Origin: Tumebacillus lacus | Lineage (GTDB): Bacteria; Bacillota; Bacilli; Tumebacillales; Tumebacillaceae | Assembly (NCBI RefSeq): GCF_026410385.1 | Contig: NZ_JAPMLT010000012.1 | Coordinates: 62,001 to 126,000, forward strand | Length of the DNA: 64,000 nt | Direction: 5' to 3' | Shown: positions 25,926 through 43,306 of the stretch, one piece after another | Position numbering within the stretch: position 1 is the stretch's first letter | Layout: each line of letters begins with the position of its first letter | The notes under the pieces: model-generated | Told to the model about the DNA's origin: nothing | Databases searched by the model: none | What the model saw: the letters and a program-made list of their open reading frames with translations, nothing else | Position numbers and translations under genes: made by a program

Positions 25926-26366
25926 ATGAAAAAAGCAATCATTGAACTCGAAAAAGGCGGCACCATGGAATTCGAACTGTTCGACACCCACGCACCGGGC
26001 ACCGTTGAGAACTTCGAGAAGCTCGCAAACGACGGCTTCTACAACGGCCTGGCCTTCCACCGCGTCATCCCGGGCTTCGTCGCTCAAGGCGGCTGCCCGC
26101 ACGGCACCGGCACCGGCGGCCCGGGCTACACCATCAAGTGCGAAGTCGTAGACAACCCGAACCAACACAAGCGCGGCGCCCTCTCGATGGCACACGCTGG
26201 CCGCAACACCGGCGGTTCCCAGTTCTTCATCGTCCACGACCGCAAAACCACCGCTCACCTCGACGGCAACCACACCGTCTTCGGTCAGATCCTCTCCGGC
26301 GAAGAGTTCATCGACTCGATCGGCCAAGGGGACAAGATGAAGGAAGTTAAGGTAGTAGAGGCTTAA
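25926..26366 (+). CDS. ppiB: Cyclophilin-type peptidyl-prolyl isomerase
   Basis: This 146-residue cytoplasmic cyclophilin speeds proline isomerisation in folding proteins. The active-site arginine is in [23 protein letters not shown] and HTVFGQI complete the catalytic face. There is no signal peptide. A TATAAT at 25872-25877 lies about 50 bases upstream, and AAAGGTGATGAC precedes the start. It is the last GC-rich gene before the AT-rich island begins. Confidence 0.93.
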
Positions 26367-26374
26367 AAAGATGG

Positions 26375-26411
26375 AAAAAGGTGCTCTACCCAATGGGTAG
26401 AGCACCTTTTT
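26375..26411. terminator. Strong bidirectional terminator at the left island boundary
   Basis: A 17-base perfect stem (26375-26391 with 26395-26411) carries A5/T5 ends and a three-base loop. It lies between ppiB and the convergent island gene. Confidence 0.92.
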
Positions 26412-26412
26412 C

Positions 26413-27306: not shown

Positions 27307-27338
27307 GTATTTACTCCTCTCCACAAGACGAAATTAGG

Positions 27339-28622
27339 TTATAAATATAACACTTCTTCAGGCCGACGCGCTTGAACCATAGAATCATACTCAAAATCCA
27401 AGCTTTTCAAGAATTCCTTAATATCCAGAAACCCTCGCTCATGGGCCATCTTCATAACCTCTTGTGCTAACCGCAAACCATTTACAAGCAAGAGTGGGTA
27501 ACCATCTTCAATAACTTCACGTTGCACAGGTTGGGAGAAAAAACTAGTCGTTACGTAAACACCGATCCAGCCCCTTTTGAGGCGTGCAACAGTTCTGGCA
27601 ATATCTTTTCCATTCGTCGGAGAATCGAACTTTTCACATTTTGCTTGTCCGAGGACAATTAATTTTACACGATTGAAGTCACTTCCAACATCAAGCCGAC
27701 CAACGAAATCCGCTCCTCCATCCCCAGAAGATGGAGTAACCCAACCCTCTACGTATTGTCCGGTTGACTTTCCTAATATGGCACCTGCAACTTTTGCTGC
27801 CAATGCTTCAAAACGAGATCGTTTCTGGTAATAAGCGTATATCTGATCCAATACAATTCTTTCTCTAGTCCCTACCAGTGGCCGTTGTTCATCTGGTTTC
27901 AAAGTCATTAATTTGGAAACACGTCTTCTAAGGCGTTCCCTGACTCCGGAGCCACTTCTGATCCATATCTTCCATGATTCTGGTGCGTATACCAATGACT
28001 CTTCCAATGTAAGTGATGAATCACGTCTCTTTGATATCCAATCCCAATTGAATTTTTCGTTCTCTTCCACAATACTTAGCACAGTGAAATCAAATACGTA
28101 ATTAGAAAAAGTACGACCTAACCGTGAATCATATTGAACGACCTTCTCAGCACGCTCCATGACCCCAAAACCTTTGAATTGTACGTTCCCTTTTACCCTA
28201 CCATCTACTTTAACCCGCTCAAAGAAAAGGATCGGCACTGAATTCTTCCGAATTTTAGGGTCTGGCGAATTATGTATCTCAAATTGTTCCAAAAGGATTC
28301 GATTACCTTGTGATTCTTCTGGTCTTACTTCTGGTCGTTTGTTATCTCCAAAATAACGGATATGTCCATTATCAACATCGAAAAAATCCTGCCAGGGTGT
28401 CTCATGAGTTCCAATTTTGTTAGGACTGCTTGAGATTAGGATCGCCGCACGCCGTTCCCCTTCAGAGGTTCGAATACTTCCAATAGGATTAATACCTGAC
28501 TCTAACAATGGTAACTTGCAATTAGGCGTATAAGTTTCGTGAAAGAAGTTTACAAGACCATCCTTTATTTCAGGGTCAGGGGAATACGGGCGTGAATAAC
28601 GAAAAATTTGTCCAATATACAA
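27339..28622 (-). CDS. Modification-dependent (type IV) restriction endonuclease, Mrr/AspBHI-like
   Basis: This roughly 427-residue protein has an Mrr-type nuclease domain in its C-terminal third. The catalytic Asp lies in GDGGADFVGRL and the Q-x-K motif in VLGQAKCEKF. The N-terminal 200 residues, including GNVQFKGFGVMERAEKVVQY and FSNYVFDFTVLS, resemble the methyl-cytosine-reading domain of AspBHI/MspJI-type enzymes from memory. It would cut DNA carrying modified cytosine. The start is TTG 28622 with AAGG seven bases before it. It is the first gene of a two-gene unit with the membrane protein and lies behind a palindromic site. Confidence 0.72.
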   Translation of the reverse strand: MYIGQIFRYSRPYSPDPEIKDGLVNFFHETYTPNCKLPLLESGINPIGSIRTSEGERRAAILISSSPNKIGTHETPWQDFFDVDNGHIRYFGDNKRPEVRPEESQGNRILLEQFEIHNSPDPKIRKNSVPILFFERVKVDGRVKGNVQFKGFGVMERAEKVVQYDSRLGRTFSNYVFDFTVLSIVEENEKFNWDWISKRRDSSLTLEESLVYAPESWKIWIRSGSGVRERLRRRVSKLMTLKPDEQRPLVGTRERIVLDQIYAYYQKRSRFEALAAKVAGAILGKSTGQYVEGWVTPSSGDGGADFVGRLDVGSDFNRVKLIVLGQAKCEKFDSPTNGKDIARTVARLKRGWIGVYVTTSFFSQPVQREVIEDGYPLLLVNGLRLAQEVMKMAHERGFLDIKEFLKSLDFEYDSMVQARRPEEVLYL

Positions 28623-28640
28623 TCGATCACCTTCTTATAA

Positions 28641-28671
28641 ACAATGAGGATAAAATATATTTTATCATTGT
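28641..28671 (-). promoter_or_regulatory. Perfect 18-bp palindrome upstream of the type IV enzyme
   Basis: GATAAAATATATTTTATC (28649-28666) is its own reverse complement. Outer arms ACAAT (28642-28646) and ATTGT (28667-28671) extend the symmetry. It lies about 30 bases upstream of the TTG start, where a repressor would cover the promoter. Confidence 0.55.
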
Positions 28672-28734
28672 TTGTATAAAGAATACTAGATATATAACTG
28701 AACAAACAGAGCGAATAATGTACCCTAATTATAA

Positions 28735-28768
28735 AAAAAGGCGGGGTCATTTCGACCCGGCCTTTTTC
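28735..28768 (-). terminator. Terminator of the helicase operon
   Basis: An A-rich/T-rich hairpin (AAAAAGGC and GGGTC arms pairing with GACCC and GCCTTTTT) spans the stop codon at 28747, with a T run on the minus strand. Confidence 0.8.
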
Positions 28769-30465
28769 CCGTACATACTCTTCTTAAACCCCGAAGCCTC
28801 ATAGTCCCTCGTATCAAAGTCGCGAACAAACTGAGAAATACTAAGCTCACTTTGTCCGGCATACAGCAACCAAACTTGCTTTTTCGCCCTAGTAAGCGCG
28901 ACGTAAAGCACCTTTTTCTCGTCGTTTATGATTTCATCTTCATCTTTCTGATACGTTTCGGACATACGATCTTTGTTTAGTTGATCAAGCGCCTCAATCC
29001 TCTGTTGGCTCGGATAGTGCAACCTGTCAAAATGAAGAATGAAAACATAATCAAACTCAAGTCCTTTGACACTGTATGCATCGGTAAAGAACAATGGCTT
29101 CTCCCGGCTGTTCAAGTTGAAACGGTGCCCATATTGATCCGTGGTTATGAGATCAAATTCCCTTGCCAATGCAGCTCTGATAGGAGAATTCTTTATCTTG
29201 AAATAATCATCATCATATCGGTGAATCACAGCAATAGTACTACCGGGATCGGCCTCTCTGATCTTGTGAACTTCGTTGACCAGCCATTTGTTCAACTTCT
29301 GAACATTTGAGTAATATCGAATCTGCGGTTTCAATCCTTCACGGACAAAGTTCTTTTCCGACTCACGATCGTTCTCCGTATCCAAAAACTGAAGTGAACC
29401 AGCAAGTGCCATGATTTGTTTGGTTGATCGATAATTGATTTTCAAACGTCTGTTCCTCTTACCTTCGACTTCCACACCCAACTCCTTGTAGGACAATGGA
29501 TTTCGTTTGTAAATCCGTTGTTTAGGGTCCCCGGACAAAGTGAGTGTTTTTTTACACAGTTTCGCGAGCACCATGATCTGCATTGGTTGCAAGTCTTGTA
29601 CTTCGTCGATGAAAATGTGATCGTATTTCAGTGACTCTGGAATGCGGTCGAAGTACCTGAGAAGCAACAACGCATAGTCCTCAGCATCTAATTCTCCGTG
29701 GTATTTCTCCTCCCGAACTCTGTTGTACTCCTCATACAGTCGGAAGATCGTTTTTCGCTGTTCTTTAGTAATACGGGGGTTATTACCACGCCCTGTTCGT
29801 TCTACCTCCAGATACTTTTCTTCATAGATAAATCCGTTGGCTTTCATCCACAGGATCTCATCCATGAAGAATGATTTCCTGTGGGTTTTATATAACTGCT
29901 GTTCTTTCGGCAGACTCTTGTGTGTTTCACTCTCCATAAAATTGTCGATAAAAACGCCGGTATGGGTCCTCATTACTTCCATTTTGTGATGGACGTCCTT
30001 CGTGGATGCACGAAACTTTGGCACTTTTATACCAATCTGCCATAACAGTTCCTTTGCCATATTATGGAAGGTGTGAATGTGCGGGTCATGACCAGCATTC
30101 TTCAGCTCCCAAAACTTCGGTGACGAACTCAGCCGTTTCTGTGCATCTTGAATCAGCGTCACGTTATATGACACGTACAAGACGCGGCTCCCCAGTTTTT
30201 CTTCATGCATCGCCTTCATCATACGATATACGAGTGCGATACTCTTCCCGCTTCCGGCCGAACCGTTTATTAGCAATGTATCTTCATCCTGTTGCACGAC
30301 AGCCAACTGATCAGGGCTTAAAGTGATATTATCAAGCCACCTCTGCACTTGATCATCCGTTACAACATACGTGCTCTTCTTTCGTCGCGCTTTCGCCGAT
30401 TTCGAATCTGTCCAGTATTCTGATATTTTGCTCCAGAACTCAAGATCAATCCTCCGCTCTTCCAA
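28747..30465 (-). CDS. UvrD-like superfamily 1 helicase (second of pair)
   Basis: This 572-residue DNA helicase carries motif I GSAGSGKS (68-75), motif II IFIDEVQDLQ, motif III SGDPKQRIYK, motif IV INYRSTKQI, motif V SVKGLEFDYVF and motif VI VLYVALTRAKKQ. It lacks any recognisable nuclease domain. Residues 1-20 (MEERRIDLEFWSKISEYWTD) share a pattern with the 69-aa protein encoded at 31915. It is the last gene of a five-gene operon, 15 bases after the sister helicase. Base composition is AT-rich. Helicases of this type occur in DNA repair and in phage defence (for example the GajB subunit of Gabija). Confidence 0.9.
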   Translation of the reverse strand: MEERRIDLEFWSKISEYWTDSKSAKARRKKSTYVVTDDQVQRWLDNITLSPDQLAVVQQDEDTLLINGSAGSGKSIALVYRMMKAMHEEKLGSRVLYVSYNVTLIQDAQKRLSSSPKFWELKNAGHDPHIHTFHNMAKELLWQIGIKVPKFRASTKDVHHKMEVMRTHTGVFIDNFMESETHKSLPKEQQLYKTHRKSFFMDEILWMKANGFIYEEKYLEVERTGRGNNPRITKEQRKTIFRLYEEYNRVREEKYHGELDAEDYALLLLRYFDRIPESLKYDHIFIDEVQDLQPMQIMVLAKLCKKTLTLSGDPKQRIYKRNPLSYKELGVEVEGKRNRRLKINYRSTKQIMALAGSLQFLDTENDRESEKNFVREGLKPQIRYYSNVQKLNKWLVNEVHKIREADPGSTIAVIHRYDDDYFKIKNSPIRAALAREFDLITTDQYGHRFNLNSREKPLFFTDAYSVKGLEFDYVFILHFDRLHYPSQQRIEALDQLNKDRMSETYQKDEDEIINDEKKVLYVALTRAKKQVWLLYAGQSELSISQFVRDFDTRDYEASGFKKSMYGKKAGSK

Positions 30466-30480
30466 CTTGCGTCGCCTCCG

Positions 30481-31902
30481 TTAGAGTTTCACTTTGCTGA
30501 ACAGGGTTTCGTCCATCTCCTCAATGAAACGCGATGGAGCGCCGGAATACAGCATGTACAACTCGTGCTTTGCTCTGGTCATCGCTACATAGAGCAACCG
30601 ACGTTCTACTGCGATATACTCATCGTCTTCATCCTCATCGCCGCGCACCGCAGGGATGTTTCCTTCTCTTACTTTTACAACGAGAACGATGTCAAATTCC
30701 AAGCCTTTTACGGAGTGCAACGTGGTCAGTTTCACTCCAGGTGTATGAACGTTGCCCTCCTGTTTCTGGATCATCTCGGAGAGTATGTCTGCGTCGGCGA
30801 ACAAGTTCTGCATTCTTTTGACGTGTTTCCACCAGCGGGTGACTACGCCAATCGTCCGATCAGGCGAACGGTCTCGCAGGGCCTTCACCATTTGCACCAA
30901 CATCCGTTCCTCATCCTGAACTTTGCCACAATCTATCACTTGAGGTTTAGAACCGTGAACATCGGGATAAAGCGGCTCGATATAGTCTTCATCTTTTGCC
31001 TTCACGATCGGGTCATTCTTTTGCAGACTGTGTGCAAGTTCAATAATTTGCCGCGTGGAGCGGAAAGTATTTTGTAACACTTTTGTCCGTCCGCCTTGGA
31101 TGTTAATGCCAATGTCTCGCCAAGCGAACGAAGTATTGTAGATTTTCTGACCCTTGTCGGCCGCCACGATCATAGACTTTCGTGCTGCGATGCGCAACAC
31201 TTGAAGTTGCGCTTGTTGCAAGTCTTGCGCTTCATCCACCAAGATGTGGTCGATCTTAACTGAATCCGGGAGTTCAGCCTGTATGTCCAAAATCCTCGGC
31301 GCGTAATCGTCGTAGTCAAGTTTATTTTCTTGTTTGAGAAACTTTTGATACGTCTCCAAAAGATCAAAGATCTTTTCGCGATCGGCTTTCGTCACACGCA
31401 CATTCCCAGTGCGTCCGATACGCTCCACTTTGAGATAAGCGTCTCGCTGTTGCAAATTCTTACCCTTTATCCAACTGATCTCTTCTTTTAGAAACGTCTT
31501 GAAGCGTTCCTGTTTGAAGAAGCGATGCTCACTTCCGGTACCGGCCTTTGAAAGGGCCTTTTCGAATAACTCATCTTGCATGCTGTTCCATACGGTGTTG
31601 GTTCTTATGTTTAACGCGCGAAGTACTTGTCCGGCCCAACTATGGAAGGTATAGACTTTCACACGATTGGGATTGATCAGATCGGCCAGATACTTTGCGT
31701 AGGCCGCCAACGTAGCGTTATAGGTAAACAACGCGACCGTAGTGCCTTTTTCCTCAGTCACAATTTTCAAGGCACGACGCAACAGAACCGTTGTCTTACC
31801 GCTTCCTGCAATTCCCTTTATTAACATGTGCTCGCCTTTGTAATCCACTGCCTCCTGCTGTTTCGGTGTGAGATCATGTTCCAAAGCAGCTGTCTGTTTC
31901 AT
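30481..31902 (-). CDS. UvrD-like superfamily 1 helicase (first of pair)
   Basis: This 473-residue helicase has motif I GIAGSGKTT (30-38), motif II ILVDEAQDLQ, motif III ADKGQKIYN, motif IV NTFRSTRQIIELA, motif V TTLHSVKGLEFDIVLV and motif VI LLYVAMTRAKHEL. It is a paralogue of the helicase encoded just downstream but lacks that protein's N-terminal 40 residues. No nuclease domain is present. The gene follows the 69-aa gene by 12 bases. An origin by duplication within the operon is likely. Confidence 0.9.
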   Translation of the reverse strand: MKQTAALEHDLTPKQQEAVDYKGEHMLIKGIAGSGKTTVLLRRALKIVTEEKGTTVALFTYNATLAAYAKYLADLINPNRVKVYTFHSWAGQVLRALNIRTNTVWNSMQDELFEKALSKAGTGSEHRFFKQERFKTFLKEEISWIKGKNLQQRDAYLKVERIGRTGNVRVTKADREKIFDLLETYQKFLKQENKLDYDDYAPRILDIQAELPDSVKIDHILVDEAQDLQQAQLQVLRIAARKSMIVAADKGQKIYNTSFAWRDIGINIQGGRTKVLQNTFRSTRQIIELAHSLQKNDPIVKAKDEDYIEPLYPDVHGSKPQVIDCGKVQDEERMLVQMVKALRDRSPDRTIGVVTRWWKHVKRMQNLFADADILSEMIQKQEGNVHTPGVKLTTLHSVKGLEFDIVLVVKVREGNIPAVRGDEDEDDEYIAVERRLLYVAMTRAKHELYMLYSGAPSRFIEEMDETLFSKVKL

Positions 31903-31914
31903 CTTTCCACCCTC

Positions 31915-32124
31915 TTAAAAGAAGTCATCATCATTTTCATTTTCACCAAATATCGCTTCCAACGCTGACGGGATTCGGCGGACCGTCTCATGTTCATTCA
32001 AAACTGCCAGAACAGAGTGCACAACTTGTTCGGCCGTGTCTTCGATGTGCGCTTGGAGTTCTTCATCGTCCCCTTGTGTCCATGCCGCTGCGATCTGGTT
32101 CCAAAAACCAATGTCAAATATCAT
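31915..32124 (-). CDS. Small acidic protein (69 aa) in the helicase operon
   Basis: This 69-residue protein begins MIFDIGFWNQIAAAWTQGDD and ends in an acidic tail (GENENDDDFF). Its first 16 residues fit D-[IL]-x-F-W-x2-I-x3-W-T, also found at the N-terminus of the helicase at 28747-30465. The rest is helical (HIEDTAEQVVHSVLAVLNEH). The start is placed at ATG 32124 after a G-rich site. An in-frame ATG at 32148 overlaps the upstream gene's end. It is probably an accessory or docking subunit; the function is unknown. Confidence 0.65.
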   Translation of the reverse strand: MIFDIGFWNQIAAAWTQGDDEELQAHIEDTAEQVVHSVLAVLNEHETVRRIPSALEAIFGENENDDDFF

Positions 32125-32137
32125 CTTAGTGCCCCCG

Positions 32138-34777
32138 TCATCGATCATCCGCTGAGTAATGCCCGTCCGGGCATTGCGGCAGATGCGGGCAGTAACGGCA
32201 GTACTCGCCAGGGATAGATTCCATTTGCATATCTTCATGTCGGACTTCCTGATTGAAAGCCTCAGTCGTCAAACGAGGCTTCCCTCGCAAGTAACTCGTA
32301 TTCAAAAACTGGAATCGTTCTCGAGCCCTGAGATACTCGGAGCCGTCATACCGATCAAACTGCATTCGAACAGAACGAACATATATCAACGCATGTTCTC
32401 TCAACTCTTGCTTCTTCAGATTTAACCAGTGCGGGAACAACTGCGATGTCTCTTGGAAAGCCTCTTCTTCCTCACGGTCTGTCAGCGCGGCAGTCACCGT
32501 TACGAGATTAGAGAAGAGAAACTCATGATGGAACGGCTCCCGGAACGTTGCAAAATCTTGTGTCAGGAAACTGTAGTAGAACCGGCGCGGGCACAGTTGA
32601 TATTCCTGTCGTGCATCCGACGGATACTTAAACATCAGTTGCACAGCTTCGTCAACATCTCCGGAAATGCGCTTCTGCTCGTCTAAGTGAATTTCTTCGA
32701 ATACATCCTCAACCAATTTCGGTTTGATACCGAGCAACGCGAGATACATCGACTCTTCAAGCTCTTTACCTTGCCATTCACGCATCCACGACAGCGTAAC
32801 CTGCGGATGGAAAGCAAGCAAAGAATAGAACAGGTACCGAGTAATCTGGGGAGCCATCTGTTCTCGCAGCAAGATCGTTTTGAGCTCTTCCCTCTGTTCT
32901 GCCAATGCTTCCAAACAATCGCGGCTGAGCGGCCACGGCACACTGGATGCACGGTAGGGCAGACTCTCCTCATCGAGTCCCACAACGTGGATTCGCTTTT
33001 GTTGCAACAACGCGGCCGCGTCCAATTCTTCGAACTTTCCGATCTTCCGTCCGTTCGGGTTATCAGGATCGTCATCCCGCTCCTCTTGTTTGTCATCGTT
33101 AAAATCACCGCCCAGGTACAGAGCCAGCGCTTCTGAGAGATCCTGCAGACGGAATTGTTCCTGAGCATTTCGCTCGGTCATCAACTGTTCTTTTAAGAAG
33201 CGAATTAAATCGCGCTCCAATGGAAGAAGCTCACTTTCTGGCACCTTCTTTTGCAATAACTCATCGATCTTCGCGAAATGGTCAGCCAACGTGACTCGCA
33301 CTTTTCCGTCTCCAAAGAGCTCTTCAGCGATACGCAACAGTTCCTCGATCATTTCAAAGACGACGAGCATGTCCTCCTCCCCTAATTTAAAGAACGAGAA
33401 GCGCAACAATGGATTTTCCATCATTTCATGAAAGCGCTTCGTCTCTGGCGGCGCATCGATCCCGCGAGTGAATGCACCGGCCACGTTCCGACGGGCCTTC
33501 ATTAGATGATCAATCCGGTTTCTCCATTGACTCAGAGACCCGCAGCCTTCAAAATACGGCAACAAATCTCGAAGTGCCAGTGTGTACTGTCTCGCATTTT
33601 TATCCCCCACTGTTAGCCAGCCGGATGCAAAACATTCAAAAAGGCTCCGCTCGTCTAGAATCAGTTTTCCTTTGGCTTCCTTCCACATGCAATGCAAGTG
33701 AAACAGAAACTGACCGATCGGATACGAGAGCAGATGACGATCTTTGAAATTTTGCGGAAAATACTCCTTCAACCGTTCATTGATTTGCTCATGGGCAGGA
33801 GAGAAGTATTCGACTTCCCCATCTTTGGAATTCGGATGAGCGCTGTACTCTCGAAGAAGTGCATAAAAGTCTTGGTACTCCAGCACCTGCAAAGTATTTT
33901 GATCAGGAGACACGGAAGTGTCCACTCTAAGGTGTGCCTCAAAAATTCGGGCGAGTAGGTCGCCAAATGTATTTTCAGGGCCGAAGGATTCCGGCACATG
34001 CCAGTTTTGATCATCTGGCACCCATCCCTTGATAAAAGCTCTTACTGATTCAAAAGTGCCTTGATAGCGCGGATCATACAGGTTGACAAACACCAGTTCG
34101 ATGCCTGCGTTTTCGAGTAAGGAGAAAAATTTGTGCTGTAACGGGGTGATGAAGTAAAAACCATGCAGGACGACCCGCTCAATACGGTCTGGTACAACGG
34201 GTCGGTCGTCGTTGATCACCCCAAACGGTATGCTTCGAATTGCGTCCGGTAACACCTCGTGAAGACTTTTCGGATTTTCTAATTCAACATTCATCCGTTT
34301 GCGAATTGATCGAAAGTCCGGGTTATTTTCTTCCATCTGTTTCCACAGCTGTATAAAAATCTTCTCCTCTTCCGTTTGCGCATGGGGTTTGACCGAATCA
34401 GGAGTCAACCCGATCTCGGTCAACGTTCGCATCGTTTTCAGCACATCTTGCTGGTTCCGGCGAAACGCGACCTGACGCTTCCCCCGAACCGGATCATCTT
34501 TAGGCAAAAGATCGATAAGTTCGGATAAATGGGCGTACTGTCGCAGTTTGGTGTCGGGGGACGCCCAACCATCGAGCAACCGTTCCATGACAAGACCTGC
34601 ACCCACAATGCGGCCAGTAAGAACAGATCTCTCCTTCTGATAAAAAGTTTCAACCCCGTGACGCAGGCTGTCCGTTGCACACATATGAACATCTCCGAGA
34701 TATGGTGCAAATCCGGCGAGATCATTAATCTTTGTGGGGTCACTGTAGGCGATCATTCTTGCAGTCACCAAATTCAC
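32138..34777 (-). CDS. AddB-like protein, Fe-S cysteines kept, nuclease core missing
   Basis: This 879-residue protein resembles AddB (RecC-like half of AddAB). It shows VVLHGFYFITPLQHKFFSLL, IHVVGLDEESLPYRASS and the late block LCPRRFYYSFL. Four cysteines match AddB's iron-sulfur staple: C729, then C860-x2-C863-x5-C869. In AddB the nuclease lies between the first cysteine and the other three and spans about 320 residues; here the gap is 131 and no GxIDR or QLxxY motif is seen. No Walker A motif is present at the N-terminus. It overlaps the AddA-like gene by four bases (ATGA) and is likely its partner. Confidence 0.8.
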   Translation of the reverse strand: MNLVTARMIAYSDPTKINDLAGFAPYLGDVHMCATDSLRHGVETFYQKERSVLTGRIVGAGLVMERLLDGWASPDTKLRQYAHLSELIDLLPKDDPVRGKRQVAFRRNQQDVLKTMRTLTEIGLTPDSVKPHAQTEEEKIFIQLWKQMEENNPDFRSIRKRMNVELENPKSLHEVLPDAIRSIPFGVINDDRPVVPDRIERVVLHGFYFITPLQHKFFSLLENAGIELVFVNLYDPRYQGTFESVRAFIKGWVPDDQNWHVPESFGPENTFGDLLARIFEAHLRVDTSVSPDQNTLQVLEYQDFYALLREYSAHPNSKDGEVEYFSPAHEQINERLKEYFPQNFKDRHLLSYPIGQFLFHLHCMWKEAKGKLILDERSLFECFASGWLTVGDKNARQYTLALRDLLPYFEGCGSLSQWRNRIDHLMKARRNVAGAFTRGIDAPPETKRFHEMMENPLLRFSFFKLGEEDMLVVFEMIEELLRIAEELFGDGKVRVTLADHFAKIDELLQKKVPESELLPLERDLIRFLKEQLMTERNAQEQFRLQDLSEALALYLGGDFNDDKQEERDDDPDNPNGRKIGKFEELDAAALLQQKRIHVVGLDEESLPYRASSVPWPLSRDCLEALAEQREELKTILLREQMAPQITRYLFYSLLAFHPQVTLSWMREWQGKELEESMYLALLGIKPKLVEDVFEEIHLDEQKRISGDVDEAVQLMFKYPSDARQEYQLCPRRFYYSFLTQDFATFREPFHHEFLFSNLVTVTAALTDREEEEAFQETSQLFPHWLNLKKQELREHALIYVRSVRMQFDRYDGSEYLRARERFQFLNTSYLRGKPRLTTEAFNQEVRHEDMQMESIPGEYCRYCPHLPQCPDGHYSADDR

Positions 34778-37281
34778 ACTCCTTCTCCTAAGAGAGCAGA
34801 CCAGCTATTCACTTTGTCTCCCCACGCATATTTACGATTGTTTAGCATCCAAAGTTGCTTCTCGCAGCGTGTCATTGCTACATACAGCAGGCGTGCTTCC
34901 TCTCGAATGACCTCTTCTCTTTCATTCTCCGCCAGCTCTGAGTACTTCGAGTTTTCCCATGTTACCTCACCGTGCCTGATCAACCAACCAGCATTGATCC
35001 CATCGCTTTCCCGTTTGAATAGCAATTCACTGAAACTATCATTTTCCTCCCACCGGAAACTGCGTTCCGTGAAAGGAACGATAACCGTGTGAAACTCCAA
35101 CCCTTTCGACCGGTGAACCGTCATAATCTGAACACGGCCGTCTCTCTCTTCATCAGGGAGTTTCGGTTCATCCACATCACGGTTGATCGCTTGGTTCAAC
35201 TTCAGCCATTTGTTGAGGGAGTATAGCGTGAGGAAGTCATTGCTAAAGACATCATGAATCATTTCAAACAGCTGATTCAGGTTGCGACGATATTGCTTTG
35301 CCCGCTTCAGTGCCTCAGCTTTGTATTCAGTTTCATTCGAATTCACGGTAGAAATGATCTGCTCCTGACGCATCCGATATCGGGAGTATGGGTTAGTTTT
35401 TTCAATGATGCCTCTGAGGACAGAAAGAATCGGTTCCAATCGAATCCTTTCTTTGACACAATCCTTCCACTCCGGAAACGGTTGATGTTGGTGCAATATC
35501 TCCAGCAAACGCTCACGTTCACCATTGCAGGGAACCAGCGCTATCCAATCAATCTGCACCTGAGAATAGGAGGTCGCGTACAGATTAAGCATACTTTGCG
35601 GGTTGGTCGGGTAAAGCAATGCTTCTACCAAACTCGCGAAATCATTCACCGCATCGCTGGTGAAGAAAGTGCCCCCAATCTCCAAATCAAAGAAGATCCC
35701 AGCGTCTTCGAACCACTCCTTCACTCGTTGCGCTTCTCGGTTCGTACGTACAAGAACCGCCACCTTTGGTGTTTCCTCACTTTCTTGGAGACGCTCTTTT
35801 TCTTTGCGCACATCTTCAAGGGCCTGGCGGACCAATCGAATCGTGTGAACGGGGTGTCTGGCATCATCTTTGTCGTACGACACCCGTTCGATGTTCAGCG
35901 AATGAGCATCGTGTTTCATGCCAATTAACGGAGTCTCGTATACGAGATACTCCTTTTCTCCCCATCCTGCAAAGATCTTGTCGATCTTGCCGAGCAGCTC
36001 TCCTGCCGTTCGATAGTTTTTGACCAGCGGATAGCCTGTCATCTTTTGACCGTTCTGCTCCTCCAGCATTTCTTTCAGCCATGTGAAAGCCGTGTAGTTC
36101 GCCCCGCGAAACCGATAGATGCTTTGCTTAATGTCACCGACGACAAACAACGAACTGTCAAAAGCCCTCTGCAGGGAAGTGATCAGGCGGATTTGTGTGT
36201 CATCGGTGTCTTGAAACTCGTCAACAAACAAATATTGAATCGGTTGCGCGACATTACGGAAGTCGATGGTTGATCGAGCGATCATATCGATTTGTCTGGT
36301 CAAATCGTTCAAAGAAATCGCGTTTTCCTCTTCTTTCAGGTTCTGAAAACGTCGTTCGCACTCAGCAAACAAGGTTTGAAACATCTCTTGAAAACCCGCA
36401 CTCTCCCCCGCAGCAGTTCCCCATTGTAATTGACCGATTTCCTCGCGGGAAAAACCTTTTCGCTCCATCTCCTCCCAGAAATCAACGACTTTTTTTACGA
36501 GTTCATATAATCGAAGGCCTTGAAGTTTTTCCGTCACAGGATATTTTTCCATCCATTCTGCCAGAAACTCATCCAAAAACCCCTCAATCAATCTTTTTCT
36601 CTCCAAACCGAACGAGCGGATCTGAACTTTGGTACCAAATCCATGAACGGAACCGAGTTGCTGAACAAGTTTTTTGGCAAAAGAGTGAATGGTCGAGATT
36701 TGCATCGTATTCAACTCTTCAATGAGTCGAATGTATCGTTGATTGCCTGTCAATTGAAAACGGCTGAGAAACTCTTTTCGCAATTTGCGAAACATGTTCT
36801 TAGCCGCGTCTCTGGTAAAAGTAATCATAACGATGTCCTTGAGTGTTACGTCAGTCATGTGCAGCAAAAAGAGAATTCGTTGCACCATAACGGTCGTTTT
36901 CCCTGTCCCCGCGCCTGCTTCTACAGACAGATGTTGCTCAGGCGGAGCATGTTCAATCCGATATTGCTCTACGTTAAAAGACGGATTTAATTCTGCTATT
37001 TGGTCAAGGCACGATTCGACATCACCAAACTGACCATCTACCACTATACAGGGTGTCGGCACAGTCGAGTGGTTGAGTTCAGCGGAAATAAATACGGACA
37101 GCAAATTGCTCTGCTCAAAACGCTCCAATCCTTCCAATGTCGGAGAACCATCCAGGAAGAGAATTACTTTGACCCCATTCTCTAACAACTGGAGTACTCG
37201 ATCCCTGTATTCATCAGTGAATGGAGAGCCGTAGTTTGCAAATAAGAGGGAATATTTCGGCGACAAGGACTGAAGTTCCAT
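34774..37281 (-). CDS. AddA-like SF1 helicase without C-terminal nuclease
   Basis: This 835-residue UvrD/AddA-type helicase has Walker A GAGTGKTT (123-130), motif II FVDEFQDTD, motif III VGDIKQSIYRFRGANY, motif V IMTVHRSKGLEFHTVIVPF and motif VI LLYVAMTRCEKQLWML. It stops about 25 residues later. AddA proteins run to about 1,200 residues and end in a PD-(D/E)XK nuclease, which is absent here. About 100 extra residues precede the Q-motif (NVEQYRIEHAPPEQ), with no recognised fold. It is the first gene of the five-gene operon. Confidence 0.88.
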   Translation of the reverse strand: MELQSLSPKYSLLFANYGSPFTDEYRDRVLQLLENGVKVILFLDGSPTLEGLERFEQSNLLSVFISAELNHSTVPTPCIVVDGQFGDVESCLDQIAELNPSFNVEQYRIEHAPPEQHLSVEAGAGTGKTTVMVQRILFLLHMTDVTLKDIVMITFTRDAAKNMFRKLRKEFLSRFQLTGNQRYIRLIEELNTMQISTIHSFAKKLVQQLGSVHGFGTKVQIRSFGLERKRLIEGFLDEFLAEWMEKYPVTEKLQGLRLYELVKKVVDFWEEMERKGFSREEIGQLQWGTAAGESAGFQEMFQTLFAECERRFQNLKEEENAISLNDLTRQIDMIARSTIDFRNVAQPIQYLFVDEFQDTDDTQIRLITSLQRAFDSSLFVVGDIKQSIYRFRGANYTAFTWLKEMLEEQNGQKMTGYPLVKNYRTAGELLGKIDKIFAGWGEKEYLVYETPLIGMKHDAHSLNIERVSYDKDDARHPVHTIRLVRQALEDVRKEKERLQESEETPKVAVLVRTNREAQRVKEWFEDAGIFFDLEIGGTFFTSDAVNDFASLVEALLYPTNPQSMLNLYATSYSQVQIDWIALVPCNGERERLLEILHQHQPFPEWKDCVKERIRLEPILSVLRGIIEKTNPYSRYRMRQEQIISTVNSNETEYKAEALKRAKQYRRNLNQLFEMIHDVFSNDFLTLYSLNKWLKLNQAINRDVDEPKLPDEERDGRVQIMTVHRSKGLEFHTVIVPFTERSFRWEENDSFSELLFKRESDGINAGWLIRHGEVTWENSKYSELAENEREEVIREEARLLYVAMTRCEKQLWMLNNRKYAWGDKVNSWSALLGEGV

Positions 37282-37856
37282 CTGTTTTGAACCCCTTTCA
37301 GATATCGAAACACTTCTAAAAGTCTATTTCTTCTGCTTAGAAGAAAGTTCGCATATAATTAGCACTATTGATATATTGATACATAACCACCATACCTGTC
37401 AAATGAAGTAAACATTCGAGATGTTTTACTGTCGGTTCACCAAAGATGAATAGGTTTACGGGGCAAGAGTTACTATATTTTGTAAATCCCTTAATTCCCC
37501 CCCCTCCTGTCTGCTTATCAAAATGTTTCCCATTTATACTTAGTAGAGTTATACTCTCACTGAATCACAAATTTTCTATAACGATTTGCTACGGTTGCAT
37601 ACAGATTTCACTGGAGATAGCAGTTGAAGAAGACGGTGAACCATACCGCGCCTTGCAGATATGATCGAGGAAGTCAATCGCTGCACGAAAGAAATACTGT
37701 TAGCACGAGGAATTGGAGCCGCCGAGTGCTTGTGCGCATCCTAATTTTTTTCGAATATGATCCTTAAAATAACCTCATAAGGTCATTTCCTATTTCTGTT
37801 AGCAGGATATAATATGGATGAGTTCAGGATAAATATGAAAAAATTTGGTGATCTGT
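37282..37856. other. Divergent intergenic region with inverted repeat
   Basis: This 575-base AT-rich stretch separates the helicase operon from the restriction-modification genes. An inverted repeat with perfect 8-base arms (TTTCTTCT 37327-37334 and AGAAGAAA 37339-37346) lies 46-65 bases upstream of the AddA-like start. A minus-strand TTGACA (37397-37402) may be the operon -35, but its -10 is unclear. A plus-strand TATAAT lies at 37808-37813 before the HTH gene. Frames between 37600 and 37745 (EEDGEPYRAL; MIEEVNRCTKEILLARGIG) could be remnants of a gene. No intact gene was seen. Confidence 0.45.
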
Positions 37857-38345
37857 ATGAGTGAAATGAGGGAGCATCTCCCCCGGAAAGAAACTGTGCA
37901 AAAACTCCTGCAAAAGATTCTTGTTTGGAAGTTCATGGGCAATATGACCAGAGCTCTGAAGCAACGCAACCTTACGCACACAGAACTGAGCAAAGCCGCC
38001 GGAAGAGTTGCCAGTGCTTTTAACAAAACGATCAACCAAGTCGAGGACCTGCGCCTGTCATCTTTTCTTCGATACTGGGTCGTGATTTCGGAGCTTACGG
38101 CAGATGACAACCTCCATGAAAAAATCGTTTTTGAGGAGTTGATCGATGAAGAGATTCGAAGAATGATCGCTGTTCTCTCAGACCTTTCCTACGAGGACCA
38201 ACCTTCGCATCTTCTGATTAGCGAAAGGGAGTTTTTCATCGGTCTTCGGGTACATGTGGAAGGCCTGAAGAAAAAACATGCTCTTGGGCCGGAGGAGTCC
38301 GAGACGTATGAGCTGATTGCAGAGTTGTGCGAGAGGATTGATTAA
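37857..38345 (+). CDS. HTH-containing protein upstream of the restriction gene
   Basis: This roughly 162-residue protein has a helix-turn-helix-like segment at about residues 30-75 (LKQRNLTHTELSKAAGRVAS, then FNKTINQVEDLRLSSFLRYW) and a helical C-terminal half. Its stop lies one base before the TTG start of the AlwI-family endonuclease, so the two are coupled. A GGTGATC ribosome site precedes ATG 37857. It could be a controller of the restriction gene, though it is longer than classic C proteins, or an accessory subunit. No firm family assignment. Confidence 0.65.
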   Translation: MSEMREHLPRKETVQKLLQKILVWKFMGNMTRALKQRNLTHTELSKAAGRVASAFNKTINQVEDLRLSSFLRYWVVISELTADDNLHEKIVFEELIDEEIRRMIAVLSDLSYEDQPSHLLISEREFFIGLRVHVEGLKKKHALGPEESETYELIAELCERID

Positions 38346-38346
38346 C

Positions 38347-39960
38347 TTGGCAAAAGAACGAAAAGTTTGGTTCATTACCCGTCCGGAGCGCGATCCAAAG
38401 TTTCACGATGAAGCGATGGCCGCGTTGCAGAAAGCAACAGACGACTTTTCTGTAAAATGGGCAAATAACCGCGAAGCTCACAAACAGTTTGAGTCAGTGT
38501 TGAGTCAGTCCGGCCTGAAGCGCAATAACATCAGTGATTCCGGTTCAGGCGGCCGCACTTGGGCAGCCATGCTGAGGACATTTGCTTATTGCTACACAAA
38601 TGAGGATGGGTACCTCGTGCCTACAAAGGCAGGACGTAAACTCATCGAGGGTGAGAAAGTTTTTGATAACATCAAAAAACAAATTCTCACTTTGCAAATC
38701 CCGAACGCCTATTTTCTTGAATCGGGGTTTCGACCGAAGTTTGAAGAAGACTTCAGCATCAGACCCGCCAGATTTCTGATCAAACTGACCAATCAACCGG
38801 ATCTGAACTACTATGTGACCAAGGAAGAAATTACTTATTTTGTCCTTACGGCGAAAAAGGACAACGAGTTGACCTTTATAACAGAGAAGATTTTGGAGTT
38901 TCGCCATGCCACCGATATCGGTAAACAGGAGATTCGTCAGCACACGGCAGAAGTGTACGATCACCGGGAGCGTTCTGACAAAGGTGCGAGAGATTTTGAA
39001 ATGGCACACTCCGATGTGGCACACACCTTTATGCTGATTTCCGATTATACCGGTTTGGTCGAGTATATCCGAGGCGATTCGCTTCGGGCCATCCCCGCGG
39101 ACAGCAAAAAAGTCTCTGCGGAACTGGCGTTTTTCGATGAACGCTACCCGTTCAACAATCGGTACAAAATCTCTCCGCAGCGAATGGCTGAGAACAACGG
39201 CCTCGATGTGGACAGTTTCAAAGCCAGCGGCTATGGAACGGAAAAACCGGCAACCAGTAAAAATAAGTTAGAGAACAAAATCAAAAAAACCTTGGAATCC
39301 TATCCGGCAGTCGATACACTCAGCACGGATGAGATCAAGGAAATCCTGCAAAAAGTATTGCCTCCACGAGATGCTGAGGCACAAGCGTTTGAGTTGAAGG
39401 AACGGTCCTATGGTGCTTTGAACACCGACTTCGTGGAGGCTTATTTAAACGAAAAGGACCCTCTCGCGTTTGAAGATAAGACCGGCGAGATCTTCAAAGC
39501 GATAGGGTTCGATGTCATGATGAGGCCTAAGCCCCATACCCCCACCACAACGAAGATCGAGATTCTTTTGAAGTATGGCGACAAGGAATGCGGCATTATC
39601 GATGCAAAAAATCATAAGAAATTCAACCTGTCGGCAAGCCTCGCCTCACACATGGTGACCGAGTACCTGCCGCACTACGATGGAATTGACGGCCGGGATG
39701 TTCAATTCTTTGGATATGTCTCCGCTACCACTTTCAGCGGTGAAAAAACCCTGAAGAAAATCACAGAGAAGATCAAGGATAAAATTCCTGACCGCGAGAT
39801 CCAAGGCATGATCATAAGTGCTCCGGTTCTGCTGGCATTCCTCGATTACTGTCTGGAAGAAAATCTGTCTAAACAAGAACGAGTCGCATTGTTCTTGAAG
39901 GCATTCAACAACACCGGTTACGACAACTTCGGTAAACTGCTGAAAGCAGTCAACAATTAA
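38347..39960 (+). CDS. AlwI-family type II restriction endonuclease
   Basis: This roughly 537-residue protein starts (M)AKERKVWFITRPERDPKFH. It matches the AlwI family from memory through GSGGRTWAAMLRTFAYCY, ILTLQIPNAYFLESGFRP and YYVTKEEITYFVLTAKKDN. A C-terminal PD-(D/E)XK nuclease is likely, with GIIDAKNH (D419, K421) as the catalytic strand. AlwI itself cuts next to GGATC; this enzyme's site is unknown. TTG 38347 follows GAGAGG by ten bases. It converges on a cytosine methyltransferase gene that probably protects the host. Confidence 0.8.
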   Translation: MAKERKVWFITRPERDPKFHDEAMAALQKATDDFSVKWANNREAHKQFESVLSQSGLKRNNISDSGSGGRTWAAMLRTFAYCYTNEDGYLVPTKAGRKLIEGEKVFDNIKKQILTLQIPNAYFLESGFRPKFEEDFSIRPARFLIKLTNQPDLNYYVTKEEITYFVLTAKKDNELTFITEKILEFRHATDIGKQEIRQHTAEVYDHRERSDKGARDFEMAHSDVAHTFMLISDYTGLVEYIRGDSLRAIPADSKKVSAELAFFDERYPFNNRYKISPQRMAENNGLDVDSFKASGYGTEKPATSKNKLENKIKKTLESYPAVDTLSTDEIKEILQKVLPPRDAEAQAFELKERSYGALNTDFVEAYLNEKDPLAFEDKTGEIFKAIGFDVMMRPKPHTPTTTKIEILLKYGDKECGIIDAKNHKKFNLSASLASHMVTEYLPHYDGIDGRDVQFFGYVSATTFSGEKTLKKITEKIKDKIPDREIQGMIISAPVLLAFLDYCLEENLSKQERVALFLKAFNNTGYDNFGKLLKAVNN

Positions 39961-39991
39961 TCATGATCACGCCGTGATCGTCCTCATTATG

Positions 39992-40027
39992 CAAAAAAAC
40001 AGGAGGGCATCTGCCCTCCTGTTTTTT
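39992..40027. terminator. Bidirectional terminator between endonuclease and methyltransferase genes
   Basis: ACAGGAGGGC (39999-40008) pairs perfectly with GCCCTCCTGT (40013-40022), with A7 before and T6 after. It overlaps the methyltransferase stop codon. Confidence 0.9.
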
Positions 40028-41144
40028 ATACTTTCAAACTGAGTTGAGTCTCTGTTTCGAAATCGATTCCGAGTCCCTTCCACCAGTCGGACTGTTCCAA
40101 GGCGTCATACTCCATCCCGGCGAAAGTCTTGAAGATCGCCTCGAAGATCACTTTGGAGCCCTGCGGAGGCACAGCCATTCCGATCTGTTGACGGACCTTT
40201 TCCTTCTTGCCTAAAAACTCAAAGGTATCCGGGAAGGTCTGAAGTCTCGCACGCTCACGATTGGTCAAGGCGCGCGGTTCCGCCCAATGATAGACATGCG
40301 TGCCTCCGCCGCCACTGCCTGTCACGGTGTAGGAAGGCTTATTGGGATGCAGACGCTTGTAGATCTGGCTCAATTTTGCACCCTTGACCTTCAGGCGAAG
40401 ATGCTCCGGCACGCCTTCATACCATGCGTTTTCACCTGGCGGGATGTGGTTCAGCATCTGAATGACTTTATCCGAATGCTTTGTAAACTCGTGATTGAAC
40501 GCATCATCAGGGATGGGCGGGTTCTCGATGGCCTCACGCGCAGTTACAAAGTTGCCGCTGTGAGTCGGTACCGGGATTTTAAAATCCAGTCCCAGATCTT
40601 TTCGAATCCCCACAATGATGATCCGATGACGTGCTTGCGGCACGCCGTATTCTTCAAATTTGTAGAGATGAGGAGTCAGGTTGTAGCCTCTCCCTGCAGA
40701 TGCCAGATCGCGAAGGATGTTGATGAAGGCCTTCCCTTCATTCGCGCTCTGCAGGCCACCCACATTTTCTGCGATGAAGAACTTGGGGTTGTGATAGTTG
40801 ATGACCTTTACACCGTATGTGTACAGTGGACCGTAATCGCCGGTCATGCCCCGCTGCTCACCGACGATGCTGTAATCGTTGCAAGGAAATCCAAAGGAAA
40901 ACGCATCAATATCGGCCAGTTCATGAATATTTAGTTCTTGAACAGGCTGATTGTAAACGATCGCTTCCTGATGATTCTTCAAGATGTTGTGTTTATAGGT
41001 AGCGCAGGCGCTCTCGTCGATGTCGTTCGCCCAAACGTGTTCCACTTTATATTCTTCTCCCGAACGGTCCGTGATCGCAGCCATTTTTGCACCATAGGCC
41101 AAACCGCCGGGACCGTTGAAGAACTCTCCCATTCTGAAAATCAC
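40026..41144 (-). CDS. DNA C5-cytosine methyltransferase
   Basis: This 372-residue enzyme transfers methyl from SAM to carbon 5 of cytosine. Motif I is FFNGPGGLAYGAKMA. Motif IV carries the catalytic C88 in GFPCNDYS, with PCN in place of the commoner PCQ. Motif VI is ENVGG, motif VIII QARHRIIIVGIR, and motifs IX-X are RERARLQTFPDTF and QIGMAVPPQ. The target-recognition region lies at about residues 195-310. The start is GTG 41144, eight bases after GAGAGGTG. It is convergent with the endonuclease and divergent from vsr, and all three likely form one system. Confidence 0.93.
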   Translation of the reverse strand: MIFRMGEFFNGPGGLAYGAKMAAITDRSGEEYKVEHVWANDIDESACATYKHNILKNHQEAIVYNQPVQELNIHELADIDAFSFGFPCNDYSIVGEQRGMTGDYGPLYTYGVKVINYHNPKFFIAENVGGLQSANEGKAFINILRDLASAGRGYNLTPHLYKFEEYGVPQARHRIIIVGIRKDLGLDFKIPVPTHSGNFVTAREAIENPPIPDDAFNHEFTKHSDKVIQMLNHIPPGENAWYEGVPEHLRLKVKGAKLSQIYKRLHPNKPSYTVTGSGGGGTHVYHWAEPRALTNRERARLQTFPDTFEFLGKKEKVRQQIGMAVPPQGSKVIFEAIFKTFAGMEYDALEQSDWWKGLGIDFETETQLSLKV

Positions 41145-41387
41145 AGCCGAAACACCTCTCTATTCATCTCCATACAGTCGCTCGCACGCTGGATAGATGA
41201 TCAGGACATACTCTACTAGAATAGTATTTTTTCGTTTTCTTTTCTACAGCACTCGAATGCATTTCGACAAGCTATCTCCCGTTCCTTCTTACACACTTTG
41301 TGTACCTTTGGTTTTCGAACCTAAGAGTATAGGGAAAAGAGGAATCTGGGAAACTCACGGCAAGCAACATCCGGAGGAGGAAGTCAG

Positions 41388-41819
41388 ATGGCCGACACAC
41401 TTACGAAAGAAGCCCGCAGCCGCAACATGAGCGCAATCCGTTCAACCCGCACAAAGTTGGAGAATCGCGTAGCGAAGGAACTATGGAAGCGAGGTTATCG
41501 GTTCCAGCACAACGTACGTGACCTGTTTGGCAAACCTGATCTGTCCATGAAGAAGTGGAAAATCGCTGTTTTCATAGACTCTTGCTTTTGGCATGGGTGC
41601 GAACTACATGCGCAAGTGCCCGCAGCAAATCAGGAGTTTTGGCTTAAGAAAATAGCCCGTAATAAAGAGAGAGACCTGAATGTCACACAATACTATCAGG
41701 ACGCCGGGTGGACGGTGCTTCGTTACTGGGAGCATGATATCAAGAAGGATTTTGAAAGGGTTATTGAAATGATCGGCGAGCATGTGTATCTGGCTAAGAA
41801 AGAGAAAGGCTCGCTCTAA
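41388..41819 (+). CDS. vsr: Very short patch repair endonuclease
   Basis: This 143-residue nickase starts repair of T:G mismatches made when 5-methylcytosine deaminates. The active-site block reads FGKPDLSMKKWKIAVFIDSC followed by FWHGCELH, with the family's Asp and His residues. The N-terminus (TKEARSRNMSAIRSTRTKLE) is typical. ATG 41388 follows GGAGGAAG. Its presence beside a C5-cytosine methyltransferase supports real cytosine methylation by that enzyme. Confidence 0.95.
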   Translation: MADTLTKEARSRNMSAIRSTRTKLENRVAKELWKRGYRFQHNVRDLFGKPDLSMKKWKIAVFIDSCFWHGCELHAQVPAANQEFWLKKIARNKERDLNVTQYYQDAGWTVLRYWEHDIKKDFERVIEMIGEHVYLAKKEKGSL

Positions 41820-41841
41820 ATTGAATCAAATTTGTCCATGC

Positions 41842-43295: not shown

Positions 43296-43306
43296 ATTTT
43301 GGTACT

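What the first reader, a model, noticed from the sequence alone, without database searches (positions are those of the whole stretch)
28747..37281. Five-gene operon of AddA-like, AddB-like, a 69-aa protein and two UvrD-like helicases
Seen: five minus-strand genes with gaps or overlaps of -4, 13, 12 and 15 bases, one terminator at the end, AT-rich composition and defence-type neighbours. Three SF1 helicases plus an AddB-like scaffold in one operon do not match any named system I recall (Gabija has one UvrD plus an OLD nuclease; RecBCD/AddAB has two subunits). Inferred: a multi-helicase DNA surveillance, repair or anti-phage machine.
Basis: partly seen in the sequence, partly recalled or inferred. 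Interest (0 to 1): 0.78.

Follow-up and report, generated by a model that had tools for sequence, protein, structure and literature searches.

The report
Restriction-linked AddAB-like multi-helicase operon
Next to a DNA restriction system, a Bacilli bacterium carries a five-gene cluster built on the DNA-end-processing machine AddAB but without its cutting parts; relatives sit beside restriction systems in many other bacteria, which suggests a helper machine that deals with DNA cut by restriction enzymes.

Summary
The five genes and their spacing are as described. The core is a diverged AddA-AddB pair. AddA-like keeps its helicase motifs but lacks the C-terminal nuclease. AddB-like has the predicted AddB fold (best PDB match B. 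subtilis AddB) and four Fe-S cysteines, but no nuclease motif. The two small helicases are paralogues (31% identity); the 69-aa protein resembles the N-terminus of the longer one (modest scores).

Of 34 homologous operons read, AddA precedes AddB in 33 (one is cut by a contig end), a small helicase of either type follows in 21, and all five genes occur in 2 (window, Cohnella luojiensis). A C5-cytosine methyltransferase lies within 10 kb in 13 of 17 genomes (0.18 expected). A second set was weaker (1 of 13), but there a separate clade adjoins type I restriction genes and one pair lies in a Dpd-like locus.

Best reading: an end-loading helicase complex that works with restriction enzymes, probably in phage defence. 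AddB-like matches no PADLOC 2.0.0 model. Function is inferred.

The parts
34774..37281 (-). AddA-like SF1A helicase, 835 aa; ends 38 residues after the start of motif VI, no C-terminal nuclease
   Evidence: PF00580 E 2.3e-47, PF13361 E 1e-25; NCBIfam addA_Gpos E 3e-50, far below its cut-off; PDB AddA 3u44_A E 2e-26; motifs and length
36943..37281 (-). N-terminal ~100-aa domain of AddA-like, found in all 14 aligned relatives; weakly PLD-superfamily-like fold
   Evidence: Alignment A5: S11, G36, G83 invariant; model pLDDT 77, pTM 0.70; best VIA Z 7.3, below the level that is safe by itself; no Foldseek match at E<=0.001
32138..34777 (-). AddB-like protein, 879 aa
   Evidence: AlphaFold2 model pLDDT 78, pTM 0.71; top PDB matches AddB 4cei_B E 2e-12, 4cej_B Z 18.6 over residues 5-808
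32171..32593 (-). Fe-S-type cysteines C729, C860, C863, C869 of AddB-like; nuclease core between them shortened and without PD-(D/E)XK motif
   Evidence: Four Cys in 15 of 15 rows of A3, spacing 116-149 against 280 in the host's canonical AddB; motif regex absent in 15 of 15. This region is modelled with low confidence
31915..32124 (-). 69-aa protein: N-terminal FWxxIAxxW segment, C-terminal acidic tail ending FF
   Evidence: 30% identical to the 74-aa protein at the same place in Geobacillus plasmid pJS1-2; profile link to the N-terminus of the 572-aa helicase
30481..31902 (-). Small SF1 helicase, 473 aa (Hel473 type)
   Evidence: PF00580 E 4e-25; GajB profile E 4e-42; 51% identical to the Geobacillus plasmid gene; motifs I, II, III, V, VI
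28747..30465 (-). Small SF1 helicase with N-terminal FWSKISEYW segment, 572 aa (Hel572 type)
   Evidence: PF00580 E 6e-25; GajB profile E 2e-32; 47% identical to the G405 gene; 31% to Hel473
28744..28758 (-). terminator-like hairpin at the operon end
   Evidence: consensus match only
27339..28622 (-). AspBHI-type methyl-directed restriction endonuclease directly downstream (neighbour)
   Evidence: PADLOC mREase_II E 6e-162; PF18062 E 6e-30
37845..38345 (+). 166-aa protein before the REase gene (neighbour)
   Evidence: No PADLOC or NCBIfam match; only a sub-threshold Pfam match
38317..39960 (+). AlwI-type restriction endonuclease (neighbour)
   Evidence: PADLOC REase_II E 3e-237; PF09491 E 3e-6
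40026..41144 (-). C5-cytosine DNA methyltransferase (neighbour)
   Evidence: PF00145 E 1e-70
41388..41819 (+). Vsr mismatch endonuclease (neighbour)
   Evidence: PF03852 E 9e-26

Best explanation
A restriction-coupled, AddAB-derived helicase complex, most likely anti-phage. SHOWN by sequence: an AddA-AddB-type pair, both canonical nuclease parts missing, Fe-S cysteines kept, one or two small SF1 helicases downstream, close linkage to restriction-modification genes. INFERRED: AddB-like with its Fe-S cluster grips free DNA ends left by the neighbouring restriction enzymes; AddA-like drives 3'-5' unwinding; the small helicase joins through an N-terminal helix (FWxxxxxxW), present in cis in the 572-aa form and supplied in trans by the 69-aa protein for the 473-aa form, and adds a second motor or clears the displaced strand; the acidic tail of the 69-aa protein may act as an SSB-tip-like hook (SSB tip recalled). 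Unwinding without Chi-type switching keeps cut phage DNA from being repaired or recombined. In relatives a nuclease domain at the AddA N-terminus would finish the DNA; here a host or island nuclease would have to.
For: AddA precedes AddB in 33 of 34 operons; helicase downstream in 21 of 34. C5 methyltransferase within 10 kb in 13 of 17 genomes, 0.18 expected, P 1.6e-23; N6_Mtase and N6_N4_Mtase 0 of 17 each (0.27 and 0.10 expected). In another clade type I HsdM within 10 kb in 3 of 13 genomes (0.24 expected, P 1.6e-3), HsdR/S beside L068 and L070. One AddA-AddB pair lies one base from a DpdE-like gene followed by DpdF- and DpdH-like genes (L067). AddB fold; Fe-S Cys 15 of 15; nuclease losses. 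NERD-type N-terminus in relatives (PF08378 E 3e-8 in L015; matching motif in L022 and L067). Two plasmid-borne copies. The host keeps a canonical AddA and AddB, so this is an extra copy.
Against: No activity, phage or interaction data. In genome set 2 a C5 methyltransferase is within 10 kb in only 1 of 13 (0.09 expected, P 0.09). The window form has no recognisable nuclease in any of the five proteins. Association does not show direction: repair of self-inflicted cuts would give the same neighbourhoods. 10 of 34 operons, read through without a cut, have no Hel473/572-type gene. The helix link between the 69-aa protein and the 572-aa helicase rests on E-values of 0.0009-0.04.
Confidence: 0.45

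Rival explanations
1. Self-protection or repair: the complex mends breaks that the neighbouring restriction system (or Vsr, or deaminated 5-methylcytosine) causes in the host's own DNA, as a nuclease-free helper of recombination.
For: No nuclease left in the window form; Vsr in the island and DNA polymerase IV plus YolD directly upstream in Geobacillus plasmid pJS1-2; a repair machine would also travel with restriction systems.
Against: Many relatives carry a nuclease-like domain at the AddA N-terminus (14 of 30 classified AddA have a long N-terminus), odd for pure protection; one pair is inside a Dpd-like locus and others by type I systems, where 5mC/Vsr chemistry does not apply; the host has its own AddAB.
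Confidence: 0.22
2. A stand-alone anti-phage system of Gabija-like type that senses DNA ends or replication forks, independent of the restriction genes and merely parked in the same islands.
For: The small helicases match GajB profiles best in PADLOC (E 4e-42 and 2e-32); islands are variable in the genus; GHKL genes PDC-M33A/B lie near L026 and L032.
Against: Enrichment is for specific partners per clade (C5 type II in three clades; type I in another) instead of defence genes at random; no GajA among the nine window proteins scanned.
Confidence: 0.2
3. A mobile-element function: DNA-end processing or recombination for plasmids or integrated islands, with cargo restriction genes for maintenance.
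For: Plasmid copies in Geobacillus zalihae and Exiguobacterium acetylicum; one short phage-labelled record L015.
Against: No relative found in 2.9 million viral contigs in two pattern scans, which reach only relatives sharing the patterns; most operons read are on chromosome-size or long contigs of genome assemblies.
Confidence: 0.1

Closest known systems
AddAB (B. subtilis type) helicase-nuclease
   Same: Gene pair, SF1A AddA motor, AddB fold (4cei_B E 2e-12, 4cej_B Z 18.6), Fe-S cysteine pattern
   Different: Both nuclease parts missing: 38 aa after the start of AddA motif VI against 406 in the host's own AddA; AddB Cys spacing 131 against 280. Gene order is AddA then AddB; the host's canonical pair has AddB then AddA. 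Extra ~100-aa AddA N-terminal domain and small helicase subunits.
UvrD-Cas4-like fusion genes beside Dcm and Vsr (Hudaiberdiev et al. 2017, PMC5704561; passages seen)
   Same: A helicase-nuclease type machine beside 5mC methyltransferase and Vsr, proposed as an ancillary defence component
   Different: There one fused protein with a Cas4-like nuclease; here a two- to five-subunit AddAB-type set, with the nuclease, where present, at the AddA N-terminus
Gabija GajB
   Same: Small UvrD-like helicases, best PADLOC match of both small helicases
   Different: No GajA among the scanned proteins; helicases work beside an AddAB-like pair
ARMADA ArmD (PMC12458937; passages seen)
   Same: GajB-like UvrD helicase as part of a defence operon with a methyltransferase
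   Different: ARMADA is built on a YprA-like helicase and an ArmB methyltransferase; its text has 0 occurrences of AddA, AddB or RecB
AddB-like nuclease/helicase beside interspaced repeat arrays (PMC10910872; passages seen)
   Same: AddB-like label, inactivated helicase domain
   Different: Described as a PD-(D/E)XK nuclease with CRISPR-like repeat arrays; I did not compare sequences or search for repeat arrays here

Membership tests
Canonical AddAB | AddA with SF1A helicase motifs | tested here: met
   PF00580 and PF13361 above cut-off; motifs II-VI and Walker A AGAGTGKT, invariant G and K in A4
Canonical AddAB | C-terminal PD-(D/E)XK nuclease on AddA | tested here: not met
   38 aa after the start of motif VI; host's own AddA has 406 with the motif
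Canonical AddAB | AddB fold with Fe-S cysteines | tested here: met
   (fold, residues 5-808); four Cys in 15 of 15. Cluster itself not shown
Canonical AddAB | Active nuclease in AddB | tested here: not met
   Motif absent in 15 of 15, Cys spacing 116-149 against 280
Canonical AddAB | NCBIfam addA_Gpos equivalog score | tested here: not met
   170.9 bits against cut-off 707.65
Canonical AddAB | Chi-regulated end resection | not testable with these tools
   Needs biochemistry
Gabija | GajB-type UvrD helicase | tested here: met
   PDLC00132 E 4e-42 and 2e-32, but AddA-like also matches GajB profiles, so this is superfamily-level
Gabija | GajA (OLD-type ATPase-TOPRIM nuclease) next to it | tested here: not met
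   None of nine window proteins from 26413 to 39960 matched GajA at E<=0.01 in the families listed (lists of the helicases are cut at 25 rows)
UvrD-Cas4 fusion of PMC5704561 | UvrD helicase fused to a Cas4-like (pfam12705) nuclease | tested here: not met
   No nuclease family in any of the five proteins at E<=0.1
UvrD-Cas4 fusion of PMC5704561 | Dcm and Vsr neighbours | tested here: met
   PF00145 and PF03852 at 40026-41819
Any system in PADLOC-DB 2.0.0 | A model for the AddB-like or the 69-aa protein | tested here: not met
   0 families for both; also 0 for the AddB-like of L067. DefenseFinder and later catalogues not searched

The most novel reading that the evidence does not exclude
A family of AddAB chassis that lost both native nucleases and became an interchangeable second stage for modification-based restriction of several chemistries (C5 type II, type I, Dpd-like): one helicase core, swappable nuclease heads at the AddA N-terminus, and a helicase subunit that exists fused to its docking helix or split from it, with the five-gene operon carrying both versions at once.
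Probability: 0.4. Interest if true: 0.76.

Novelty: new variant of a known kind. Interest (0 to 1): 0.62.

Why it matters
Restriction enzymes cut invading DNA, but what happens to the ends next is usually credited to the housekeeping RecBCD or AddAB, which phages inhibit (PMC9836394, passages seen). A dedicated AddAB-type complex travelling with restriction systems would be a second line that those inhibitors may not reach. It also offers a test case for how a helicase-nuclease is rebuilt: nucleases deleted, heads exchanged, a subunit split in two. The hypothesis is directly testable in laboratory Bacillus strains.

Tried and rejected
Gabija member: rejected, no GajA among nine scanned window proteins. 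Ordinary AddAB: rejected, nuclease parts missing and the host has its own pair. Generic hypothesis that any defence gene is enriched equally: not favoured, since N6_Mtase and N6_N4_Mtase were within 10 kb in 0 of 17 set-1 genomes; but only 0.27 and 0.10 were expected, so these zeros show that adenine systems are not strongly enriched there, no more.

C5 link as a rule for the whole family: rejected. In set 2, 1 of 13 within 10 kb (P 0.09). The 16-kb window (5 of 13 for C5; 9 of 13 for C5 or N6) was chosen after I had seen the distances, and several of those genomes are close kin (G519/G730, G643/G678), so its P values are descriptive only.

Sequence proof of AddB homology: hhalign of A3 against the host's AddB failed (probability 1%); phmmer against the PDB found nothing. 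Foldseek gave no match at E<=0.001 for the AddA N-terminal domain and the best VIA Z is 7.3 (TrmB, then PLD enzymes), so PLD-like is a lead; I saw no HxK motif in it by eye.

Viral relatives: two scans of viral contigs, none confirmed; one in 50,697 phage records (L015, an unannotated 8.4-kb scaffold from faeces). Rfam: 0 matches over 22-46 kb. tRNA: 0 in the window.

Rows dropped before counts. From: G712, G731, G749 (E above 1e-20) were left out of set 2; G749 has an N6_Mtase about 2 kb from its partial match, a row that would have favoured my reading. From: G164, G221, G382 (weak) not read. L064 and L014 are the same plasmid (equal length and gene coordinates), counted once. In one search methyltransferase pieces under 900 bp apart were merged (32 loci from 41 rows), which lowers the expected number slightly. 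In one search, L027 and L073 (AddA cut or missing) were not in the table, and L015 and L075 (contig ends) were left out of it; L074 was counted as without Hel572.

In one search the 2397 background ORFs are mechanical ORFs, and the small proteins themselves are among them.
Full report
WHAT IS THERE. Five intact minus-strand genes run from 37281 to 28747 with gaps of -4, 13, 12 and 15 bases. They lie in an AT-rich stretch, G+C 0.41-0.49 from about 26 to 44 kb, between flanks of 0.54-0.61. The same stretch holds an AspBHI-type methyl-directed REase, an AlwI-type REase, a C5 methyltransferase and Vsr.

THE PROTEINS. AddA-like (835 aa) has the UvrD/AddA helicase domains and matches solved AddA (3u44_A E 2e-26), but stops 38 residues after the start of motif VI, where the host's own AddA continues for 406 residues with its nuclease. 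AddB-like (879 aa) has no family match and no PDB sequence match; hhalign to the host's AddB failed. Its AlphaFold2 model (pLDDT 78, pTM 0.71) finds B. subtilis AddB first in the PDB (4cei_B E 2e-12; 4cej_B Z 18.6 over residues 5-808); UvrD and RecC chains follow. Four cysteines in the AddB Fe-S arrangement are present in 15 of 15 aligned relatives, but the stretch between them is 116-149 residues against 280 in canonical AddB and has no PD-(D/E)XK motif; this C-terminal region is modelled with low confidence. An Fe-S cluster needed for binding broken DNA is known for AddAB (Yeeles et al. 2009; I saw only the title in a reference list). An inactive nuclease-like domain is known in RecC (PMC1185551; listing and start of abstract only).

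The two small helicases (473 and 572 aa) are paralogues, 31% identical, and match GajB profiles in PADLOC. The 69-aa protein is conserved in place: 74 aa in Geobacillus (30% identity). A profile of six such small proteins, run against the first 90 residues of 220 long ORFs, puts four N-termini of 572-type helicases on top (L019 E 0.0009, window 0.0026, L020 0.02, L017 0.04). In reverse, a profile of 13 helicase N-termini ranks the window's 69-aa protein first of 2397 short ORFs (E 0.0064), with L013 and L021 at ranks 8 and 11; the other small proteins were not in the top 12 shown. So the 69-aa protein looks like the detached N-terminus of the longer helicase; the scores are modest. Small proteins were seen in 7 of 10 operons with a 473-type helicase, the one in L029 without the FW motif. 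All 7 have five or more acidic residues in the last 12, and 5 of 7 have six or more, against 8 of 2397 short ORFs, these five included. Several end in an aromatic or hydrophobic residue, reminiscent of the SSB tip (recalled).

RELATIVES. Searches brought in Geobacillus and Exiguobacterium plasmids, one phage-labelled scaffold, a congener G405, G325 and G359, 13 named genome loci in Bacillota, and 18 of 398 genomes of the class and 6 of 398 of the phylum by profile, the weakest rows doubtful. I read 34 distinct operons. AddA directly precedes AddB in 33; in L073 the contig ends inside AddB. A small helicase of either type follows in 21; L015 and L075 are cut, L074 has only a distant one 1.9 kb on, and 10 have none. 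All five genes occur in the window and in Cohnella luojiensis L020. Rossellomorea aquimaris L022 has two operons in tandem: AddA-AddB-Hel572, then nuclease-headed AddA-AddB-small-Hel473.

HEADS. In many relatives AddA has a longer N-terminus. L015 carries a NERD domain (PF08378 E 3e-8), and L022 (second operon) and L067 show the same motif; others have a different conserved block that I take for nuclease-like by eye only. Downstream of it, in all 14 aligned, sits a ~100-aa domain with invariant S11, G36, G83, weakly PLD-like. Hel572 occurs in 12 of 16 short-AddA loci and 0 of 14 long-AddA loci (Fisher 2.2e-5, not corrected for descent). The tree puts the window in a short-AddA clade with L013, L019, L020, L021, L022a, L024 and L030 (support 95/97); a second short-AddA clade holds L017 and L068-L075.

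RESTRICTION LINK. In 17 genomes (set 1: window genome, G405, G325, G359 and the 13) a C5 methyltransferase lies within 10 kb of the AddB-like gene in 13; 0.18 expected, P 1.6e-23. Misses: G412 at 10.1 kb, G325 none on the contig, G415 and G418 on short contigs. In G413, G414, G420 and G421 it is the genome's only match. Two adenine/N4 families gave 0 of 17 each (0.27 and 0.10 expected). Set 2 (13 further genomes at E<=1e-20) is weaker for C5: 1 of 13 within 10 kb (P 0.09), 5 of 13 within 16 kb, a distance chosen after seeing the data. There N6_Mtase is within 10 kb in 3 of 13 (0.24 expected, P 1.6e-3). Gene by gene, L070 has HsdS and HsdR directly upstream, L073 HsdM and specificity genes downstream, L068 HsdR upstream. 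In L067 the AddA-AddB pair is followed, one base on, by DpdE-like, then DpdF- and DpdH-like genes. G598 and G488 show no such link. REases of at least three PADLOC profiles lie by L020, L022, L023, L024, L029, L030 and L031, so the partner is not one hitch-hiking system.

HOW IT LIKELY WORKS. Restriction makes ends; the AddB-like Fe-S scaffold would load there and AddA-like unwind; the small helicase docks by its N-terminal helix, in cis or through the 69-aa protein. Where a nuclease head exists it cuts; in the window form cutting is left to other enzymes. Only the parts list, fold and linkage are shown; the rest is inference. Repair of self-restriction is the main rival. RecBCD as a phage-immunity hub with phage inhibitors is described in PMC9836394 (passages), and AddAB with one motor and two nuclease domains in PMC4824097 (passages).

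KNOWN OR NEW. Precedent: UvrD-Cas4 fusions beside Dcm and Vsr, read as ancillary defence parts (PMC5704561, passages). PMC10910872 mentions an AddB-like nuclease with repeat arrays (passages); PMC12458937 has GajB-like ArmD but no AddA or AddB (passages). Literature searches, in open-licence PubMed Central papers only and judged from listings, showed no description of this operon. PADLOC 2.0.0 has no model for its AddB-like or 69-aa protein. Hence: new variant of a known kind.

Noticed in passing
window 26000-44000; L076, L077, L078: Variable, AT-rich island between a cyclophilin/SLH-3D gene pair and two HTH-type genes recurs at the same place in the four genus members; G406 holds a Vsr-like gene there and G405 a C5 methyltransferase, and in G405 the AddAB-like operon sits on the other side of the SLH-3D gene (gene identities in L076-L078 partly by eye).
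   Followed up: partly
window 27339-28622: Methyl-directed AspBHI-type REase in the same island as a C5 methyltransferase: it must tolerate the resident methylation pattern.
   Followed up: no
L026:2960-5658, L032:3130-5058; also by eye L027, L029, L030, L031: A GHKL-like candidate defence cassette (PADLOC PDC-M33A/B in L026, PDC-M33A in L032) lies near several nuclease-headed AddAB-like operons.
   Followed up: partly
L067:3-14549: AddA(NERD-like)-AddB pair directly continued by DpdE-, DpdF- and DpdH-like genes on the same strand: possible unnoticed part of a Dpd-like system.
   Followed up: partly
L023:6343-10014: AddA-like of 1223 aa that seems to carry two different nuclease-like N-terminal blocks (by eye).
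   Followed up: no
L030:15065-15415: Short ORF resembling the N-terminus of the nuclease-headed AddA form, perhaps a remnant of a lost second operon beside an intact one (by eye).
   Followed up: no
L020:10348-11598: PLD-domain protein (PF13091 E 1.5e-16) directly after the five-gene operon of Cohnella luojiensis; a candidate nuclease partner.
   Followed up: no
L013:7596-9193: DNA polymerase IV and YolD-like genes directly upstream of the operon on the Geobacillus zalihae plasmid.
   Followed up: no
L014:14122-16098: 658-aa protein after AddB in the Exiguobacterium plasmid, no Pfam or PADLOC match; it could replace the small helicase.
   Followed up: no
window 26413-27324: 303-aa protein at the island edge with no curated family match.
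   Followed up: no
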